Source of the DNA: Candidatus Thioglobus sp. NP1
Lineage (GTDB): Bacteria > Pseudomonadota > Gammaproteobacteria > PS1 > Pseudothioglobaceae
Reading direction: 5' to 3'
NCBI RefSeq assembly: GCF_003326015.1
Contig: NZ_CP023860.1
Location: forward strand, 434,001-498,000
Length of the DNA: 64,000 nucleotides
The notes below the pieces were generated by a model that worked only from the letters and a program-made list of their open reading frames with translations, made no database searches and had not been told where the DNA came from. Shown piece by piece: positions 46,380-53,688 of this stretch; the stretch's first letter is position 1, and the number at the start of each line of letters is the position of its first letter. The position numbers and the translations under genes are program-made.

Positions 46380-47021
46380 ATGGAACAGTATCAAAAGGAT
46401 TTTGTAGATTTTACGTTAGCAACCGGTGTCCTTAAATTTGGTGAATTTACTCTTAAGTCTGGTCGAATTAGTCCTTATTTTTTTAACGCAGGACTATTTA
46501 ATTCTGGAAGTCATTTATCACAACTAGGTATTTTCTATGCAAAAGCAATCGAAGCAAGTGGGCTTAAGTTTGATGTCCTTTTTGGCCCTGCTTACAAAGG
46601 AATTCCTTTGGCGACTGCAACAGCAATTGCGCTTAATGACAGTCTTGGAAGAAATATTCCTTACAGCTTTAATCGCAAAGAAGCGAAAGATCATGGAGAG
46701 GGTGGCAGTATTGTTGGACACCCTTTAGAGGGCGATATTCTAATCATTGATGATGTCATAACAGCGGGAACTGCAATTCGAGAGGCGCAAGATATTATCA
46801 CGGCTAATGGTGCTAAAACAAAAGGAGTTATAGTTGCCTTAGATCGTCAGGAAAAAGGGAATAGCAAACTTTCAGCGATCCAAGAGGTTGAGGAATTTTT
46901 TGGAGTTAAAGTTCTAAGTATTATTAACTTATCTCACATTGTTGATTATTTAAAAGATTCAAAAGATGAGGAAGCTCTTCTAAGAATTGAGCACTATAGA
47001 TCTCAATACGGCATCAACTAA
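46380..47021 (+). CDS. pyrE: Orotate phosphoribosyltransferase
   Basis: A 213-residue PyrE, as in E. coli. It joins orotate to PRPP to give OMP. The PRPP motif is [13 protein letters not shown]. The N-terminal [14 protein letters not shown] and [13 protein letters not shown] loops carry catalytic lysines and histidine. It stands alone, divergent from xthA. Confidence 0.97.
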
Positions 47022-47041
47022 TCAAGTTGTTATGAAACGCT

Positions 47042-47479
47042 TTATTTTAAAGGTTCAATAATAAAGGTTGAGGACTCAACATCAATAATTTTAACTGTTT
47101 GACCAGCACTAAGATTTGAACCTTTAGCAAACCAAAGAGATTCCCCTATTTTAACTTTAGTAACTCCATTTTCTATTGATTCAATAATGCACTCTTTACC
47201 AATATATTTTTTAGCTTTGTCATTAAGTTGATCATCTACTGTTTTAACTGGGTAATATTTTTTTGATAAATAAGTAGCTGAACTTGCTAGGACTAGAAAA
47301 ATAATTAACTGTAAGGTTCCTGAAATTTCTGGAATAAGATAGAAAATAATACTAACAGTAATTGCAGATGCTCCAATCCATAAAAGGAATACAGTCCAAA
47401 CAAATAATTCAATAATTATAAGAACAAGACCAATTACTAGCCAGTGCATATAGTTTAAATTTTCGAATAACAATTCCAT
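47042..47479 (-). CDS. NfeD-like membrane protein (short form)
   Basis: A 145-residue protein with two to three membrane spans in the first 90 residues and a C-terminal OB-fold domain (GKECIIESIENGVTKVKIGESLWFAKG), typical of the short NfeD/YbbK type. These proteins usually pair with an SPFH/stomatin protease partner in the same operon. None is adjacent here. I prefer the ATG at 47479; a TTG three codons upstream is possible and no strong ribosome-binding site is visible. Confidence 0.88.
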   Translation of the reverse strand: MELLFENLNYMHWLVIGLVLIIIELFVWTVFLLWIGASAITVSIIFYLIPEISGTLQLIIFLVLASSATYLSKKYYPVKTVDDQLNDKAKKYIGKECIIESIENGVTKVKIGESLWFAKGSNLSAGQTVKIIDVESSTFIIEPLK

Positions 47480-47570
47480 GGGTACCAATTTTATATTCTT
47501 TCTATTAAGGTATTAAATTTTTCTTTATTTTTTCACTGATTTAGTACATAATTCGATTTGGAGGCTAAAT

Positions 47571-48449
47571 ATGAAAAAAAATAATCAAGAGTTGATCGAT
47601 CAGTTTAATAAAGATGGTTACATATTTTTTGAAAATGCTCTTTCTGATGATCAATTACTAGCAGTTAATGAACAGCTTGCTGCCTGGGTTGAGGAAAGTA
47701 AAAGCCATAACGAAAATTTTGGTGAGATCATGGATGGAAGGCCACGCTTTGACCTTGAATTAAAAAGTCATACTAGTGAGACTCCAGCTGTGAGAAGAAT
47801 TACCTCACCTGCTGAAATTTCAGATATCTGTCTTGATGTTGTCAAAGATAATAACGCACTTGATCTTGTTGCTGATATTTTTGGGCCAAATATCACACAT
47901 TTAGGCAACAAAATAAACCTTAAGTTACCCAGTTCTGGGACTGAAGTAAAGTTTCATCAAGATTTTCCTTTTGAGCCTCATTCTAATCAAGATATTATGA
48001 CAGTTCTGTATTTTCTAGATGACGTAACTCTTGAAAATGGGCCTCTTGAAGTTGTTCCTGGAACACATAATGGTCCGCTCTTTTCTCATTGGCATAATGG
48101 CATTTTTACTGGGGCGGTAGATGCAAAAGTTGAATCTGCAAGTAGAAAACAAGCTATAAGTTGTATTGGTAAAGCTGGCTCAGCATGCCTAATGCATGGA
48201 AAGTTATTACATGGCTCTGGACCAAATCTCTCTAAGCTTTCACGATCTTTATTTATTATTACTTATAAGGCTGAAGATGCTGTTGCGCTCTCCCCAAACC
48301 ATCTCCCAAGTGAGTTGGTTGGGATGATTGTTAGAGGTGAAGAAACTGGAACTGTAAGATGCACTAGTTATAGTGTTGAGTTGCCAGAATATCCTAAAGA
48401 GGCTTCATTCTTTGGACAACAATCTAAAAGTAAAAGTGTGGGAATGTAA
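47571..48449 (+). CDS. Phytanoyl-CoA dioxygenase (PhyH) family oxygenase
   Basis: A 292-residue Fe(II)/2-oxoglutarate oxygenase. The iron ligands are H129 and D131 in KFHQDFPFEP and H214 in LLHGSGPN. R225 in SKLSRSLFI is the likely 2OG-binding arginine. GPLEVVPGTHNGPL is characteristic of PhyH enzymes. It precedes tmpA-like and tmpB-like genes on the same strand. PhnY, the partner of the HD oxygenase PhnZ in aminoethylphosphonate degradation, is also a PhyH member, so a phosphonate substrate is possible but not shown. Ectoine or other hydroxylase roles are alternatives. Confidence 0.85.
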   Translation: MKKNNQELIDQFNKDGYIFFENALSDDQLLAVNEQLAAWVEESKSHNENFGEIMDGRPRFDLELKSHTSETPAVRRITSPAEISDICLDVVKDNNALDLVADIFGPNITHLGNKINLKLPSSGTEVKFHQDFPFEPHSNQDIMTVLYFLDDVTLENGPLEVVPGTHNGPLFSHWHNGIFTGAVDAKVESASRKQAISCIGKAGSACLMHGKLLHGSGPNLSKLSRSLFIITYKAEDAVALSPNHLPSELVGMIVRGEETGTVRCTSYSVELPEYPKEASFFGQQSKSKSVGM

Positions 48450-48487
48450 TAATTTATTAAAAAAAAGACTGGCTTGGAGTGCACTAA

Positions 48488-49618
48488 ATCAAACTAATTA
48501 AAAAACTTACTTTAGAGAATGATGATCTTATCATTGTTTGGCAAGACGGTAAGCAAAGTCAACTATTTAGTCATTGGTTGCGCGATCATTGTCAAATGCC
48601 TGTATCAAGAAATGAGAATAATGGCCAACGCTTATTTAGTATTATTGATATTCGTAAAGATCTATATATTGAAGAAGTTACTCAAGATTCAGAGGGCAAT
48701 GTTTGTATTCTTTTTCAGCCTGAAAACCACTTATCAGTTTTTTCACAGGATTGGTTAAGAAAAAACTGTTATGACCTTAATAATCACTTCGATGATAGAA
48801 GTGAAAAAAATAAAAAACTTTGGCAAAAAAATACTTTTAATGATGGTGTGCCAAAAATTTCATATAATTACTTTCATCAAAATATTGAAGGTAAGTTACA
48901 AGTTTTATGTTCCATTAGGGACATGGGGTTTTGTATCATAAAAGATGCTCCTACTAAAGAAGGCCAAGTTCTAGCGGTTATAAAAGAATTGGGATTTACT
49001 AGAGAGACAAATTATGGCAAATTATTCGAGGTTCGCACAGAAGTTAATCCAAATAATCTTGCATATACAAATATGGGGCTTGGTTCTCATACTGATAATC
49101 CATATCGTGATCCTGTTCCAACAGTTCAACTCTTGCACTGCTTAGAGAGCTCAACTGAGGGCGGTGATTCAGTTTTAGTAGATGGTTTTAATGCTGCAAA
49201 AATTCTGCGACAAGAAAGTAGTGATAATTTTTTAACATTAACAAAAAACTGGATTAATTTTCGCTTTAAAGACGAAGAAACAGACCTTAGATCAAGGGTG
49301 CCAATGATTGAAGTCAATGATAATAATGAAGTTATTAAGGTACGGTATAACAATCGCTCTATAGATACAATTAATCTTCCAGCAGTGAAGATTCGATCGT
49401 TTTATTCAGCCTATCGTCACTGGGGTGAGGTGATTGAAAGAGATCAGCTGAAGATTACATTTCAGCTATTACCTGGTGAAATAATATTATTTGATAATAC
49501 GAGAGTGATGCATGCTAGAACAGCTTTTTCTAAAAAGGGTAAGCGTCATTTACAGGGAGCATATGCTGATTTAGATGGCCTTTATAGTCTTCTCAATATT
49601 CTACAGTCAAAGCAATGA
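48488..49618 (+). CDS. tmpA: TauD/TfdA oxygenase, gamma-butyrobetaine hydroxylase/TmpA-like
   Basis: A Fe(II)/2OG oxygenase of the gamma-butyrobetaine hydroxylase group. An N-terminal small domain (VWQDGKQSQLFSHWLRDHC) precedes the catalytic domain, whose iron ligands are H201 and D203 (GSHTDNPYRDP) and H342 (VMHART), numbered from 48488. The zinc-binding cysteine cluster usual in the small domain is reduced to one cysteine. It overlaps a PhnZ/TmpB-type gene by 4 bases, which favours TmpA (hydroxylation of 2-trimethylaminoethylphosphonate) over carnitine synthesis. The frame is open only back to 48488, with no ATG, GTG or TTG before 48578. AUC at 48488, 8 bases after GGAG, is the likely start. 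Confidence 0.8.
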   Translation: MKLIKKLTLENDDLIIVWQDGKQSQLFSHWLRDHCQMPVSRNENNGQRLFSIIDIRKDLYIEEVTQDSEGNVCILFQPENHLSVFSQDWLRKNCYDLNNHFDDRSEKNKKLWQKNTFNDGVPKISYNYFHQNIEGKLQVLCSIRDMGFCIIKDAPTKEGQVLAVIKELGFTRETNYGKLFEVRTEVNPNNLAYTNMGLGSHTDNPYRDPVPTVQLLHCLESSTEGGDSVLVDGFNAAKILRQESSDNFLTLTKNWINFRFKDEETDLRSRVPMIEVNDNNEVIKVRYNNRSIDTINLPAVKIRSFYSAYRHWGEVIERDQLKITFQLLPGEIILFDNTRVMHARTAFSKKGKRHLQGAYADLDGLYSLLNILQSKQ

Positions 49619-50178
49619 CAAATCTTAACAGCCATAATATTGTAAATCATATTGAAGATATTTTTAATAGGCGAGGGGCTGAATCTTATTTAGGTGAGGA
49701 CGTTACAATGTCACAGCATATGCTTCAAGCAGCTCAGTGTGCAAAAAAATCTGGTGCAGATGATAGTCTTATTGTTGCCGCACTGTTGCATGATATTGGC
49801 CATTATCAAAATGAAATTCCAGAAACAGCATTAGCTAAAGGTAAAAATAATTATCATGAAGAGGCAGGTGCTAATTTTTTAGAAGACTACTTTCCACTAT
49901 CTGTTGTAGAGCCTATTCGACAACATGTTGCCACAAAGCGCTACCTCTGTGCAGTCAGACCAGAATACTTCGAATTGCTCTCTGCTGCATCGATAGACAC
50001 TCTTAATCTGCAAGGGGGGCCAATGTCCTCAGAGGAGGTTATAGAGTTTGAAAAAAATGATTATCTTGAAGAGTGTATCAAACTCCGTTATTGGGATGAA
50101 GATGCTAAAGATTCGAATAGAATTTGTCCATCATTTTCTTATTATCGAGCTTTGATTGAATCTTTAGTTAAAAACTAA
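49615..50178 (+). CDS. tmpB: HD-domain mixed-valent diiron oxygenase, TmpB/PhnZ-like
   Basis: A 187-residue HD protein. It keeps the special residues of the C-P-cleaving oxygenases PhnZ and TmpB: lid Y25 and E28 in YLGEDVTMSQHMLQAA, and iron ligands H35, H59, D60, H81, H104 and D161 (RYWDEDAK), plus H62. Ordinary HD phosphohydrolases lack the Y-x-G-E lid. These enzymes oxidise a 1-hydroxyalkylphosphonate to a carboxylate and phosphate with O2. With the upstream TmpA-like enzyme, the expected products are glycine betaine and phosphate. The start overlaps the tmpA stop by 4 bases. Confidence 0.85.
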   Translation: MTNLNSHNIVNHIEDIFNRRGAESYLGEDVTMSQHMLQAAQCAKKSGADDSLIVAALLHDIGHYQNEIPETALAKGKNNYHEEAGANFLEDYFPLSVVEPIRQHVATKRYLCAVRPEYFELLSAASIDTLNLQGGPMSSEEVIEFEKNDYLEECIKLRYWDEDAKDSNRICPSFSYYRALIESLVKN

Positions 50179-50272
50179 AATTAATTATAAAAATTTCTCT
50201 ATTCTTAAACATGCGCTATATCTTCATTCGGAAAGTATAATAATGCTGTAATAAATTGAATTTAAACACTTA

Positions 50273-50740
50273 ATGAATAATAGATTACTAATAATTAATG
50301 GACCAGGTCTCTCTGATTTAAGTAACTTTAGTGAATATGGTCATGATGATCTAACTTTAGAGAAGGTTCAGCAAAAATGCTTAGAAACTTGTGAGAGCTT
50401 AGGCCTATCTTTGGTGTTTTGTCAGACTGATGATGAGGTTGAGTTGACAAATTATTTAACAAGTGCTTGTAAAGAGTTTGATGCACTTATCATTAACCCT
50501 ATTGGCTACTCTCATGCATCCTTGATAGACTCCGATATATATACTTCCAATATAGAGACAATTACCCTTCAGAATAAACCAGTTATTGAGGTGCATATTG
50601 CTAATATCTTTCAAAAGGGGATTGATATTACTAAACCAATAAAAGTATCTGAGGGCAGTGTTGGATTTGTAAGTGGGTTTGGCATTCATAGTTATGATCT
50701 AGCTATTAGAGCGGTTAGTAAAAAACTGAGGATTAATTAA
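50273..50740 (+). CDS. Divergent type II dehydroquinase-like protein
   Basis: A 155-residue paralog of AroQ with the same fold pattern (LLIINGPGLSDL at the start, then IINPIGYSH, then VIEVHIAN). It keeps the equivalents of the catalytic Y22, N75, H81 and H108. It lacks the loop arginine of the NLLGTREPEIYG motif and the later RETFRH arginines. It is thus probably not a dehydroquinase. It may be an inactive partner or have another activity. aroQ follows with a one-base overlap (TAATG), so the two may assemble together. Confidence 0.75.
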   Translation: MNNRLLIINGPGLSDLSNFSEYGHDDLTLEKVQQKCLETCESLGLSLVFCQTDDEVELTNYLTSACKEFDALIINPIGYSHASLIDSDIYTSNIETITLQNKPVIEVHIANIFQKGIDITKPIKVSEGSVGFVSGFGIHSYDLAIRAVSKKLRIN

Positions 50741-51183
50741 TGAACATCTATGTTATCAATGGTCCAAATATAAATCTACTTGGCACTCGTGAGCCAGAAA
50801 TTTATGGTCACGAGACATTAGACAGTATTTCTAAGGAGTGCATTAATTTGGGCTCTAAAGATGGCCATGATGTTAAATTTATGCAGTCTAATTATGAGGG
50901 TGAACTGGTTGAATGGATTCAGGATGCAATAAATAAAAAAATTGATGCAATTGTCATTAATGCAGCTGCCTATACGCATTCATCAATTGCAATACACGAT
51001 GCTCTAAAGTCCTTCCCTGGCTTTAAGATAGAGCTGCATATTTCCAATCCACATTTACGTGAAACTTTTAGGCATATTTCTTTTATCTCACCAGCAGTGG
51101 ACGCCGTTGTTGCAGGTCTTGGTGCCGATGGCTATAGTCATGTCATTGAGTTATTGGCAGATTTACAAAAGAGCTATAAGTAA
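50740..51183 (+). CDS. aroQ: 3-dehydroquinate dehydratase, type II
   Basis: A 147-residue AroQ. It dehydrates 3-dehydroquinate to 3-dehydroshikimate as part of a dodecamer. NGPNINLLGTREPEIYG holds the catalytic R17 and Y22. INAAAYTHSS holds N74 and H80, ELHISN holds H100, and HLRETFRH holds the substrate arginine. Directly preceded by a divergent copy of itself. In other genomes aroQ usually sits with accBC, so this placement beside amine/phosphonate genes is unusual. Confidence 0.93.
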   Translation: MNIYVINGPNINLLGTREPEIYGHETLDSISKECINLGSKDGHDVKFMQSNYEGELVEWIQDAINKKIDAIVINAAAYTHSSIAIHDALKSFPGFKIELHISNPHLRETFRHISFISPAVDAVVAGLGADGYSHVIELLADLQKSYK

Positions 51184-51252
51184 AAATAAAACTCTAATAA
51201 TTATTTCAAGTTATTAAATATCAGCATATCTGTTTTAATACAAATATCAATC

Positions 51253-53688
51253 CTAAGCTAATATTCGACTATAACTTGGATCATAAATCCCAAATGGAAT
51301 GACTTCAACTGAAATCATTTCACCTAATAAATCTAGCATCATTCTAGTTCCTTCTATAGATTTATCTAGATTTACAAATGCATATGCAAGGTTGAGATTT
51401 ACTCTGTGTCCCCATTCTCCAGATGTTATTGTACCAATGACTTTATCATCTTCAATTAGTGAGGCTCCACCATATGCAGGAGAATTTTTACTATCTATTT
51501 TTAGACAGACAAGTTTTTGTTTCATGCCATCTTTGAAGCGATTTTGTAATGCTTTTTTTCCAATGAAGTTATCTTTATTTAGATTGACAAAACGATCAAG
51601 GCCAGTTTCATAAGGATCAAACTCAGTTAGTAAGTCTGACTTCCATGCTAAAAATCCTTTTTCCATTCTCATGGACTCTACAGCTCTTGACCCAAAAAGC
51701 TTCATTCCAAAACCTTTTCCCGCATTAGAGATTGTTAGATAAGCTGCGTATAGAAATGAATTTGGGATATGCACTTCATAAGCAAGCTCACCTGAGAAGC
51801 TAACTGACATTACGGTGGCTGGAGAAAAACCTATGAAACATTCCCTGACACTTAGCCATGGAAAGGCCTCCTTACTCCAGTCTTCACGGCTGCATCTTGA
51901 TAAGACATCTCTTGCTTTGGGCCCTGCTAAAAGGAGGATAGTTTGATCATTAGTTAGGCTTTTAATTGCGACTTCTTCATCATCTTTTAAGTGTTGCTTT
52001 AGCCAATCCATATCATGGAACTCCGATGCTGCAGCTGAACCATACCAGATTCGATTAGGCCCTCGATCTGATGACGGAATATTAGAAATAGTTGCCTCAC
52101 TTTTTATCATTCCAAAGTCATTCAATAGATAACCTAATCCAATTCGACTTGGCTTGTGAGTAATATTTCCACAAAACATACGATCGATAAAAGTATCAGC
52201 ATCTGGGCCACTAATTTCAAACCGATTAAAGCCATTGACCTCGGTGAGTCCAACATTGTTTTGTATGTTCTTTACTTCTTTTGCGACAATTTCAAATGTT
52301 TCATCAAAATGAAAAGAGAGTGATGGTTGAAAGTCTTTTGAGGGTTTTATATATTCAACACGCTCCCATCCATTAATCACTGTGAATGCAGCATTTTCTG
52401 AATCCATTACTGGAGTGAGAGGAGTAGTTTTTGCATTGCGAGCTGTAGGGCGATGCTCATGAGGAAAATGAAAGCGAAACTCATTTTGATAATCTTCAAT
52501 GGCCTTTAGAGAGGTCATTTCAACATTCGCATGAGAGGTAAATCTTCTAGGATCAAGACACCAAGTGTCATAGCATGCCTCACCATGAACAATTTGTTGG
52601 GCAAGCAACCAACCGTGTCCGCCACCTTCACCAAGACCAGCTCTTAAGCCAATTATGCAAAAAGCATTTTCTTTTCCTGGAATTTTTCCAACCAGTGGAG
52701 CACCATCAATTGTGTAGGTAATTGGGCCATTAATAATGCTTCTGATTCCAGCATTCATAAGAGCTGGCATGCGCTCAAATGCCCCATCCAAAACATCAGT
52801 CACTCTCTCTAAATCATCCGGACAGAGAGCATTCACAAAGTTTGGATCGATTCCATCCATCCCCCATGGTTTACAATTTTGTTCATAAAATCCAATCAGA
52901 AGTCCATTCTTATCTTGTCGACAATAATAATCAGATATAGGACATCTTAAGAGAGGCATTCGATGATCTGAATGGATAATTTCTGGAATATCCTCTGTTA
53001 AAAAGTACTGATGCTCCATAGAAGCTATAGGATGATGGACGCCCATCATTTTGCCTACCTCATTTACCCTGTATCCACAGGCATTAACAATAATATCACA
53101 ATCAATATTACCATTCTCAGTAGTAACCTTCCATGTCCCATCTGGGTATTGTTCTAATGCAGTTACTGGAGTATTTGTGTAAACCTCAGCACCAGCTTTT
53201 CGAGCTCTTCGAGTTAAAGAGTGACATAATTGATAAGGGTCTATATCACCATCAAGTGGATCCCATAATCCACCAATTAAATTATCTGTTGATATTAATG
53301 GATGACGTCGTTGACATTCCTTGGCATCAATGACTTCAAAATTAACATCCATACCTCTAGCCATTGATACAAAGTGATGGTAGCCCTGCATTTGTTCTTT
53401 TGTACTGGCAAGTCTTATTCCTCCATCACCGTAGTTGTAGTTGACTGGGTGATCTGAATCATCAGACAATTCTTTGTATAATTTAATTGAATGTGTTTTT
53501 AAACCAACCATTGTTTGGTTCATGCCAAAATTAGTAACCTGCGCTGCAGAGTGCCAAGTGGTTCCACTAGTAAGATCATTTCGCTCAACTAGAACAACAT
53601 CCGCCCAGCCCTCTTCAGTAAGGTGGTATAAGGTGGAACAGCCCGCAATTCCTCCCCCAATAACTACAACCCTGGCTCTTGATTTCAT
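51253..53688 (-). CDS. FAD-dependent dimethylglycine/sarcosine dehydrogenase-like protein
   Basis: An 811-residue two-domain enzyme. The N-terminal DAO flavoprotein half begins with VVVIGGGIAGCSTLYHL (FAD dinucleotide motif). GTTWHSAAQVTNFG places H46 where related dehydrogenases bind FAD covalently. The C-terminal half is GcvT-like (FNRFEISGPDADTFIDR, MEKGFLAWKSDL) and would pass the released one-carbon unit to tetrahydrofolate. The likely substrates are dimethylglycine or sarcosine. Its location opposite TmpAB fits the breakdown of glycine betaine, though the first demethylation enzyme is not in the window. It follows the CIA30 gene by 17 bases. Confidence 0.87.
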   Translation of the reverse strand: MKSRARVVVIGGGIAGCSTLYHLTEEGWADVVLVERNDLTSGTTWHSAAQVTNFGMNQTMVGLKTHSIKLYKELSDDSDHPVNYNYGDGGIRLASTKEQMQGYHHFVSMARGMDVNFEVIDAKECQRRHPLISTDNLIGGLWDPLDGDIDPYQLCHSLTRRARKAGAEVYTNTPVTALEQYPDGTWKVTTENGNIDCDIIVNACGYRVNEVGKMMGVHHPIASMEHQYFLTEDIPEIIHSDHRMPLLRCPISDYYCRQDKNGLLIGFYEQNCKPWGMDGIDPNFVNALCPDDLERVTDVLDGAFERMPALMNAGIRSIINGPITYTIDGAPLVGKIPGKENAFCIIGLRAGLGEGGGHGWLLAQQIVHGEACYDTWCLDPRRFTSHANVEMTSLKAIEDYQNEFRFHFPHEHRPTARNAKTTPLTPVMDSENAAFTVINGWERVEYIKPSKDFQPSLSFHFDETFEIVAKEVKNIQNNVGLTEVNGFNRFEISGPDADTFIDRMFCGNITHKPSRIGLGYLLNDFGMIKSEATISNIPSSDRGPNRIWYGSAAASEFHDMDWLKQHLKDDEEVAIKSLTNDQTILLLAGPKARDVLSRCSREDWSKEAFPWLSVRECFIGFSPATVMSVSFSGELAYEVHIPNSFLYAAYLTISNAGKGFGMKLFGSRAVESMRMEKGFLAWKSDLLTEFDPYETGLDRFVNLNKDNFIGKKALQNRFKDGMKQKLVCLKIDSKNSPAYGGASLIEDDKVIGTITSGEWGHRVNLNLAYAFVNLDKSIEGTRMMLDLLGEMISVEVIPFGIYDPSYSRILA

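What the first reader, a model, noticed from the sequence alone, without database searches (positions are those of the whole stretch)
47571..50178. Phosphonate-oxidising module: TmpA/TmpB-like pair preceded by a PhyH oxygenase
The HD protein keeps every residue I associate with PhnZ/TmpB (Y25, E28, H35, H59-D60, H81, H104, D161). The overlapping upstream gene is a gamma-butyrobetaine-hydroxylase-like oxygenase, exactly the TmpA type. TmpAB turns 2-trimethylaminoethylphosphonate into glycine betaine and phosphate. The added PhyH gene upstream is the family of PhnY, the other known partner of this HD class. One HD oxygenase may thus serve two hydroxylases of different families, a combination I do not know to be described.
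Basis: partly seen in the sequence, partly recalled or inferred. Interest (0 to 1): 0.65.

Follow-up and report, generated by a model that had tools for sequence, protein, structure and literature searches.

The report
TmpAB phosphonate pair beside a PhyH
A small-genome bacterium carries a known kind of two-enzyme pathway that should release phosphate and glycine betaine from a natural phosphonate; the extra oxygenase gene next to it is a steady neighbour in this genus but does not resemble the known phosphonate hydroxylase family, so the proposed shared pathway is not supported.

Summary
The three genes exist as described. The TauD-like and HD proteins are a TmpA/TmpB pair. The TauD protein lies in a supported clade with crystallised TmpA and has the TmpA-type letter at 9 of 9 positions that separate HD-coupled from HD-free homologues. 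The HD protein keeps YxxE and all metal ligands and is 49% identical to crystallised TmpB, though below the curated TmpB cut-off. The PhyH protein is not close to the PhnY model: 29.7 of 500 bits, less than two unlinked PhyH paralogues. The order PhyH-TmpA-TmpB holds in 20 of 23 genus genomes with the HD gene, but hardly elsewhere: PhyH is near TmpB in 1 of 80 TmpB loci by tblastn, 2 by profile; TmpA/TmpB are near PhyH in 0 of 26 outside PhyH loci. Some relatives keep TmpAB without this PhyH. Verdict: ordinary TmpAB plus a PhyH of unknown substrate. Side finds: fused TmpA-TmpB in three sister genomes; a probable non-AUG start of tmpA.

The parts
47571..48449 (+). PhyH-family Fe(II)/2-oxoglutarate oxygenase, substrate unknown (H129, D131, H214, R225 invariant in 20 rows; their roles are recalled)
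   Evidence: ORF; Pfam PF05721; alignment A2; PhnY model NF052437 29.7 of 500 bits
48488..49618 (+). TmpA-like 2-trimethylaminoethylphosphonate hydroxylase (TauD family; H171, D173, H312 counted from the TTG at 48578); probable non-AUG start at ATC 48488, mechanical ORF start TTG 48578
   Evidence: NF049936 410.8 over 400 and TIGR02409 448.9 over 414.75; 6npb E 8.8e-90; tree; residues; 5' end
49615..50178 (+). TmpB-like HD-domain diiron oxygenase, cleaves the C-P bond (function inferred)
   Evidence: 6npa E 2.4e-55; NF049941 252.2, under its 300 cut-off; ligands and YxxE conserved
51253..53688 (-). DAO/GCV_T FAD protein of the dimethylglycine/sarcosine dehydrogenase type; neighbour that could act on glycine betaine breakdown products (inferred, not shown)
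   Evidence: Pfam PF01266, PF16350, PF01571, PF08669; a similar gene, in some cases only weakly so, lies within 8 kb of TmpB in 8 of 80 loci

Best explanation
The last two genes are a complete TmpA/TmpB module. TmpA (Fe(II)/2-oxoglutarate) hydroxylates carbon 1 of 2-(trimethylammonio)ethylphosphonate; TmpB (HD-domain diiron oxygenase) then splits the C-P bond with O2, giving phosphate and glycine betaine. Shown here: homology, conserved catalytic residues, tree position, conserved pairing. Inferred: substrate and chemistry, from the characterised Leisingera enzymes. The PhyH gene upstream may be co-transcribed with them in this genus (same strand, short gap; not shown), but is a separate Fe(II)/2-oxoglutarate hydroxylase of a distinct subfamily, most likely acting on another small solute and not supplying TmpB.
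For: TmpA: a branch with 95/86 support holds crystallised TmpA and 49 of 71 rows; all 17 class homologues without adjacent TmpB lie outside; 9 of 9 diagnostic residues. In 369 class genomes the 6 places above 250 bits (own included) all have TmpB adjacent and the 17 below 230 bits have none seen (L238 ends at a contig end). TmpB. TmpAB without PhyH: 70 of 80 TmpB loci have TmpA, none of these 70 has PhyH by tblastn, one by profile; G030 has TmpAB and no PhyH at E 1e-30, G047 only a 39% relative elsewhere. PhyH without TmpAB nearby: 0 of 26 outside loci. Its nearest class relatives (52-55%, L165-L167) have EutA-like and M24-hydrolase genes close by in 3 of 3, a diaminopropionate-ammonia-lyase-type gene in 2 of 3 and a weakly ProX/choline-type transporter in 2 of 3.
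Against: PhyH-TmpA-TmpB order is kept in 20 of 23 genus genomes with the HD gene, which suggests some shared role. In the class sample 3 of 6 PhyH genomes also have TmpAB (own, G271, G375); without own that is 2 where the simple product gives about 0.1, though both are one genus and the genes lie on different contigs. Two alphaproteobacterial PhyH genomes (G453, G459) have an HD homologue elsewhere. The HD protein misses the curated TmpB and Phn-HD cut-offs, and TmpA also passes the gamma-butyrobetaine model with a higher score. No PhnD-type protein above cut-off in the own genome (19.3 of 27 bits). PhyH neighbours in other lineages are not uniform, so its substrate class is a guess.
Confidence: 0.62

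Rival explanations
1. One reading: PhyH and TmpA both hydroxylate phosphonates (for example less methylated aminoethylphosphonates by PhyH) and one HD oxygenase finishes both.
For: Conserved gene order in 20 of 23 genus genomes; PhnY partners of PhnZ are 2-oxoglutarate oxygenases (passages); one Rhodospirillales locus (L150) has TmpB followed by a PhyH and no TmpA; PhyH and TmpAB co-occur in 3 of 6 class PhyH genomes.
Against: PhyH scores 29.7 of 500 bits on the PhnY model, below two unlinked PhyH paralogues of the same genome (42.7 and 47.2). PhyH of L150 is only 25% identical and falls elsewhere in a quick tree with long branches. No TmpA or TmpB near 26 outside PhyH relatives. TmpAB kept without this PhyH in G030 and G047.
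Confidence: 0.12
2. PhyH works in the same catabolic route but not for TmpB: for instance on glycine betaine or a demethylated product, or on a sister betaine taken up by the same transporter.
For: Position with TmpAB and near a dimethylglycine-dehydrogenase-like gene; a DMGDH-like gene also lies close to the PhyH relative in L165, beside a weakly ProX/choline-type binding protein (48.3 of 379 and 38.9 of 215 bits).
Against: No biochemical data; the DMGDH-like gene is not seen in the fetched neighbourhood of several genus members; no uniform PhyH context.
Confidence: 0.2
3. The TauD-like gene is a true gamma-butyrobetaine hydroxylase and the HD gene is an unrelated neighbour.
For: It passes the TIGR02409 model with a higher score (448.9) than the TmpA model (410.8).
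Against: Tree and diagnostic residues put it with TmpA; 17 HD-free homologues lie outside; TmpA and TmpB are one fused protein in three sister genomes.
Confidence: 0.04

Closest known systems
TmpA/TmpB of Leisingera caerulea (PDB 6npb-6npd and 6npa; described in PMC10574752 and PMC8177086, passages read)
   Same: Both families, catalytic residues, gene order TmpA then TmpB, close spacing; 49% identity for TmpB
   Different: PhyH gene directly upstream; HD protein under the curated TmpB cut-off; no PhnD-type transporter protein over cut-off in the genome; three sister genomes fuse TmpA and TmpB
PhnY*/PhnZ (AEP) and Gimesia PhnY/PhnZ1 (methylphosphonate)
   Same: HD oxygenase; a 2-oxoglutarate oxygenase nearby
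   Different: HD is closer to TmpB (E 2.4e-55) than to PhnZ (3e-31); PhyH far below the PhnY model
PhoF of Fonsecaea multimorphosa (fused PhnY-PhnZ; passage in PMC10574752)
   Same: Fusion of a hydroxylase and an HD oxygenase, as in L037-L039
   Different: The sister-genome fusion is TauD-type TmpA with TmpB, in bacteria; in the window the two are separate genes
Ectoine hydroxylase ThpD/EctD (TIGR02408)
   Same: Best NCBIfam hit of the PhyH protein
   Different: 55 bits against a 336.5 cut-off; not a member

Membership tests
TmpA (2-trimethylaminoethylphosphonate hydroxylase) | Curated NCBIfam model NF049936 | tested here: met
   410.8 bits, cut-off 400
TmpA (2-trimethylaminoethylphosphonate hydroxylase) | Groups with characterised TmpA, apart from HD-free homologues | tested here: met
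   Branch support 95/86; 17 of 17 HD-free class homologues outside; 9 of 9 diagnostic residues. One second TauD gene beside TmpB (L082) also lies outside
TmpA (2-trimethylaminoethylphosphonate hydroxylase) | Activity on trimethyl-AEP | not testable with these tools
   Needs an assay
TmpB / HD-domain oxygenases of phosphonates | H...HD...H...H...D ligands and YxxE loop (motif as given in PMC8177086) | tested here: met
   Y25, E28, H35, H59, D60, H81, H104, D161 present and invariant with 6npa
TmpB / HD-domain oxygenases of phosphonates | Curated cut-offs NF049941 (300) and TIGR03276 (214.6) | tested here: not met
   252.2 and 198 bits; TmpB is still the best-scoring family. Described as TmpB-like
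PhnY (methylphosphonate hydroxylase) | Curated NCBIfam model NF052437 (500) | tested here: not met
   29.7 bits for the window PhyH
PhnY* (AEP hydroxylase) | Tree placement with the authentic protein | not tested
   No authentic PhnY* sequence could be fetched
Ectoine hydroxylase EctD | TIGR02408 cut-off 336.5 | tested here: not met
   55 bits
Gamma-butyrobetaine hydroxylase (carnitine synthesis) | TIGR02409 cut-off 414.75 | tested here: met
   448.9 bits, but the model also catches the fused TmpA-TmpB (483.4 bits), so it does not discriminate here

The most novel reading that the evidence does not exclude
In this genus one TmpB serves two hydroxylases of different families, TmpA for the trimethyl substrate and PhyH for a second natural phosphonate, so that a single C-P cleaving enzyme is fed by exchangeable hydroxylases.
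Probability: 0.12. Interest if true: 0.6.

Novelty: new member of a known kind. Interest (0 to 1): 0.28.

Why it matters
It shows the trimethyl-AEP pathway genes in 23 of 29 genomes of a small-genome gammaproteobacterial genus and which genes do and do not travel with them. It also warns that curated models cannot tell TmpA from gamma-butyrobetaine hydroxylase here and miss this TmpB. If the PhyH did turn out to feed TmpB, it would be a new pathway layout.

Tried and rejected
PhyH as PhnY: not supported by the NCBIfam model, the quick tree and the neighbourhoods. PhyH as ectoine hydroxylase: cut-off not met.

I first read the neighbours of the outside PhyH relatives as EutB and DoeA and wrote so in a note. 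The models name them a diaminopropionate-ammonia-lyase-type enzyme and an M24 hydrolase, with only EutA-like at 188 of 318 bits, so an ectoine pathway is not shown and that note is wrong on this point.

Attempts to get authentic PhnY: NF052437 in 398 phylum genomes gave 5 matches of 146-167 bits, none over the cut-off, with no TmpA- or TmpB-like gene in the fetched stretches. PhnZ in 398 phylum genomes hit 38; of the 30 loci given (one is the own locus) none shows a whole PhyH within about 1.5 kb, and 15, own included, show a TmpA-like gene. PhnZ in plasmids hit 28 records; I opened 4 of them and saw no PhyH. Window PhyH in plasmids: 60 records, one opened. Viral contigs: no HD relative.

Labels: 11 rows marked noHD inside the TmpA clade. 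Ten are errors of my script (long or fused ORFs: five Streptomycetaceae, three Mesorhizobium or Rhizobiales, L037, L038), since or one search shows TmpB beside them; the eleventh, L122, has a TmpA-like gene about 1.2 kb away on the other strand. One row marked HD, a second TauD gene of L082, lies outside the clade. HD rows of L083-L148 were thinned to one in three before the tree. In one search I left out the genus rows, L122 and that second L082 row.

Literature: searches; passages read in PMC10574752, PMC8177086, PMC8316502, PMC5924519, PMC13188858, PMC10590968 and PMC9381506; the 2019 TmpAB paper is not held. I make no claim that anything here is absent from print.

Full report
What is there. 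The window is bases 434001-498000 of a 1,689,404-base single-contig genome. From memory and size I take it for a Pseudothioglobus-like gammaproteobacterium; no call names it. The three ORFs of the finding are present: PhyH 47571-48449, TauD-like to 49618, HD 49615-50178, all on the + strand, the last two overlapping by 4 bases. In 47000-51300 the only terminator-like site is on the - strand, and promoter-like sites (16) are no more frequent than in shuffles (mean 19.9).

The HD protein. Its best solved relative is TmpB of Leisingera (6npa, E 2.4e-55), then PhnZ (E 3e-31). All six metal ligands and the YxxE pair are invariant in an 8-row alignment that includes 6npa; identity to 6npa is 49%. 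The ligand pattern and the role of YxxE are as given in PMC8177086 (passages read). It reaches 252.2 of 300 bits on the curated TmpB model, 198 of 214.6 on Phn-HD and 151 of 300 on PhnZ1, so it is TmpB-like by rank, not by cut-off.

The TauD-like protein. Best solved relative 6npb TmpA, E 8.8e-90; gamma-butyrobetaine dioxygenase E 9e-49. It passes both the TmpA model (410.8 of 400) and the gamma-butyrobetaine model (448.9 of 414.75), so the models do not decide. Three tests do. First, 16 of 369 class genomes have a homologue at E 1e-40, at 23 places; the 6 best (252 bits and more, own included) have TmpB adjacent, and in the 17 others (229 bits and less) none was seen in the fetched flanks of up to 1.5 kb (L238 ends at a contig end). 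Second, in a tree of 71 rows a branch with 95/86 support holds 49 rows: crystallised TmpA, the window protein and 47 rows from loci with TmpB. Outside lie all 17 HD-free class homologues, three TauD paralogues of L037, L038 and L080, human gamma-butyrobetaine dioxygenase and a second TauD gene of L082 that also neighbours TmpB (thinning and label errors are told under Tried and rejected). Third, 9 positions are at least 90% conserved in 73 HD-coupled rows and at most 25% in the 17 HD-free rows; the window has the HD-coupled letter at all 9.

The PhyH protein. Pfam PhyH 3.3e-28. Its score on the methylphosphonate hydroxylase (PhnY) model is 29.7 against a cut-off of 500. Of the four other PhyH proteins that one search found in the same genome, two score more (42.7 and 47.2) and two less, though none lies near TmpAB. 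Five homologues of other genomes, with no TmpA- or TmpB-like gene in the fetched stretch, score 146-167. H129, D131, H214 and R225 are invariant in 20 rows; that these are the iron and 2-oxoglutarate ligands is recalled.

Gene order in the family. HD is found in 24 of 83 family genomes: 23 of 29 in the genus, and G047 of another genus. PhyH (E at most 1e-30) is found in 25 of 83: 24 of 29 in the genus, and G047 with a 39% relative. In 20 of the 23 genus genomes with HD the order is PhyH-TmpA-TmpB; in two of these (G015, G026) one more ORF lies between PhyH and TmpA. In G014, G028 and G030 TmpAB lies elsewhere and is fused; PhyH is unlinked in the first two and not found in the third (93% complete). 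In G047 TmpAB sits between pyrE and aroQ without PhyH. G012 and G017 have PhyH at a contig end, so their order is unknown.

Gene order elsewhere. TmpA is found in 70 of 80 loci, PhyH by tblastn in 1 (L150, 25% identity, no TmpA), a DMGDH-like gene in 8, an AllA-like gene in 9; a profile search adds a distant PhyH in L082. Some loci are cut by contig ends. Conversely, PhyH relatives occur in 6 of 369 class genomes at E 1e-40, own included, and in 47 of 210 Alphaproteobacteria at E 1e-30. I fetched 20 of the alphaproteobacterial places (19 genomes), the five class relatives and G047's: TmpA or TmpB appears in 0 of 26, with flanks from under 1 to about 9 kb. Three class genomes have both PhyH and TmpAB (own, G271, G375), in the last two on different contigs. 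Without own that is 2 genomes where the product of the frequencies gives about 0.1, but both are one genus. G453 and G459 have PhyH and an HD homologue at separate places.

What PhyH may do. The nearest class relatives (L165-L167, 52-55%) lie close to an EutA-like protein (188 of 318 bits for L165) and an M24 hydrolase in 3 of 3, a diaminopropionate-ammonia-lyase-type enzyme in L166 and L167, and a weakly ProX/choline-type transporter in L165 and L167; L165 also has a DMGDH-like gene. L168 and L172 (48%, 39%) lie with an ArgE-type deacetylase, RidA and DUF1028 proteins (RidA and DUF1028 are my reading of the sequences). Alphaproteobacterial relatives have other neighbours. The own genome has a lyase and M24 pair of this type, about 330 kb away. 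I infer a small-solute hydroxylase; this is weak.

Pathway reading. TmpA and TmpB would give phosphate and glycine betaine, as reported for Leisingera (PMC10574752, passages read). A dimethylglycine-dehydrogenase-type gene lies 1.1 kb downstream on the other strand and could take part in later demethylation; this is inference. No PhnD-type binding protein passes the cut-off in the own genome, while 9 of 29 genus genomes have one over it, so uptake would be by another system, perhaps a betaine transporter.

Start of TmpA. Upstream of the TTG at 48578 conserved protein sequence continues for 30 codons, to codon ATC at 48488, directly after an in-frame stop; GGAG ends 8 bases before it. Of 22 loci compared (genus and G047), 12 have an in-frame ATG four or six codons further up, 9 (window included) have ATC at this codon, one has ATA with a GTG three codons up. 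Of the nine, eight have no ATG, GTG or TTG between the previous in-frame stop and this codon; L046 has a TTG seven codons up. Against an ATC start, six of the nine have a TTG or GTG 13-14 codons downstream; the window, L043 and L044 have none before codon 48578. From 48578 on, 1 of 23 Ile codons of the window gene is ATC. A non-AUG start is likely, not proven.

Verdict. The TmpAB half of the finding stands; the PhyH half does not. New member of a known kind, with a genus-specific neighbour.

Noticed in passing
L037:6464-8173(-), L038:6929-8692(-), L039:6625-8376(-): TmpA and TmpB are one fused ORF of 569-587 aa in three sister genomes (G014, G030, G028), supporting their functional coupling. 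The passages I read mention a fungal PhnY-PhnZ fusion but not this one.
   Followed up: partly
window 48488-48577: tmpA appears to start at a non-AUG codon (ATC after an in-frame stop, GGAG 8 bases upstream); ATC is kept at this codon in 9 of 22 compared loci.
   Followed up: partly
L034:8712-10010(+), L041:2594-3892(+), L037:5143-6486(-), L038:5613-6911(-), L039:5296-6597(-): A 432-447 aa protein right after TmpB in several relatives; the one scanned (L034) has no Pfam match and only a weak NCBIfam hit to methylcobalamin:coenzyme M methyltransferase (19.6 bits). Possible TmpAB companion.
   Followed up: partly
L037:4476-5141(-); L089, L103, L109, L111, L114, L118, L121 after TmpB: A ureidoglycolate-lyase-like (PF04115 in L037) gene recurs near TmpB: 9 of 80 loci, directly after TmpB in seven, including Ruegeria and Thalassovita.
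   Followed up: no
L150:8001-9384(+): Rhodospirillales locus with TmpB directly followed by a PhyH-family gene and no TmpA found: a better candidate for a PhyH-HD pair than the window.
   Followed up: partly
L106:5518-8576, L126:5513-8576: Sneathiella loci with a DMGDH-like gene directly before TmpB and no TmpA found in the fetched stretch.
   Followed up: no
window 50273-51183: Two dehydroquinase-II genes in tandem; the first is divergent (77.6 bits on aroQ, cut-off 169.85), the second passes a subfamily model (194.2 of 171).
   Followed up: no
L040:9330-10118(-): A halogenase-like (HalD, PF23169) 2-oxoglutarate oxygenase gene lies between PhyH and TmpA in G015; an ORF without Pfam match is there in G026 (L032:8100-9074).
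   Followed up: no
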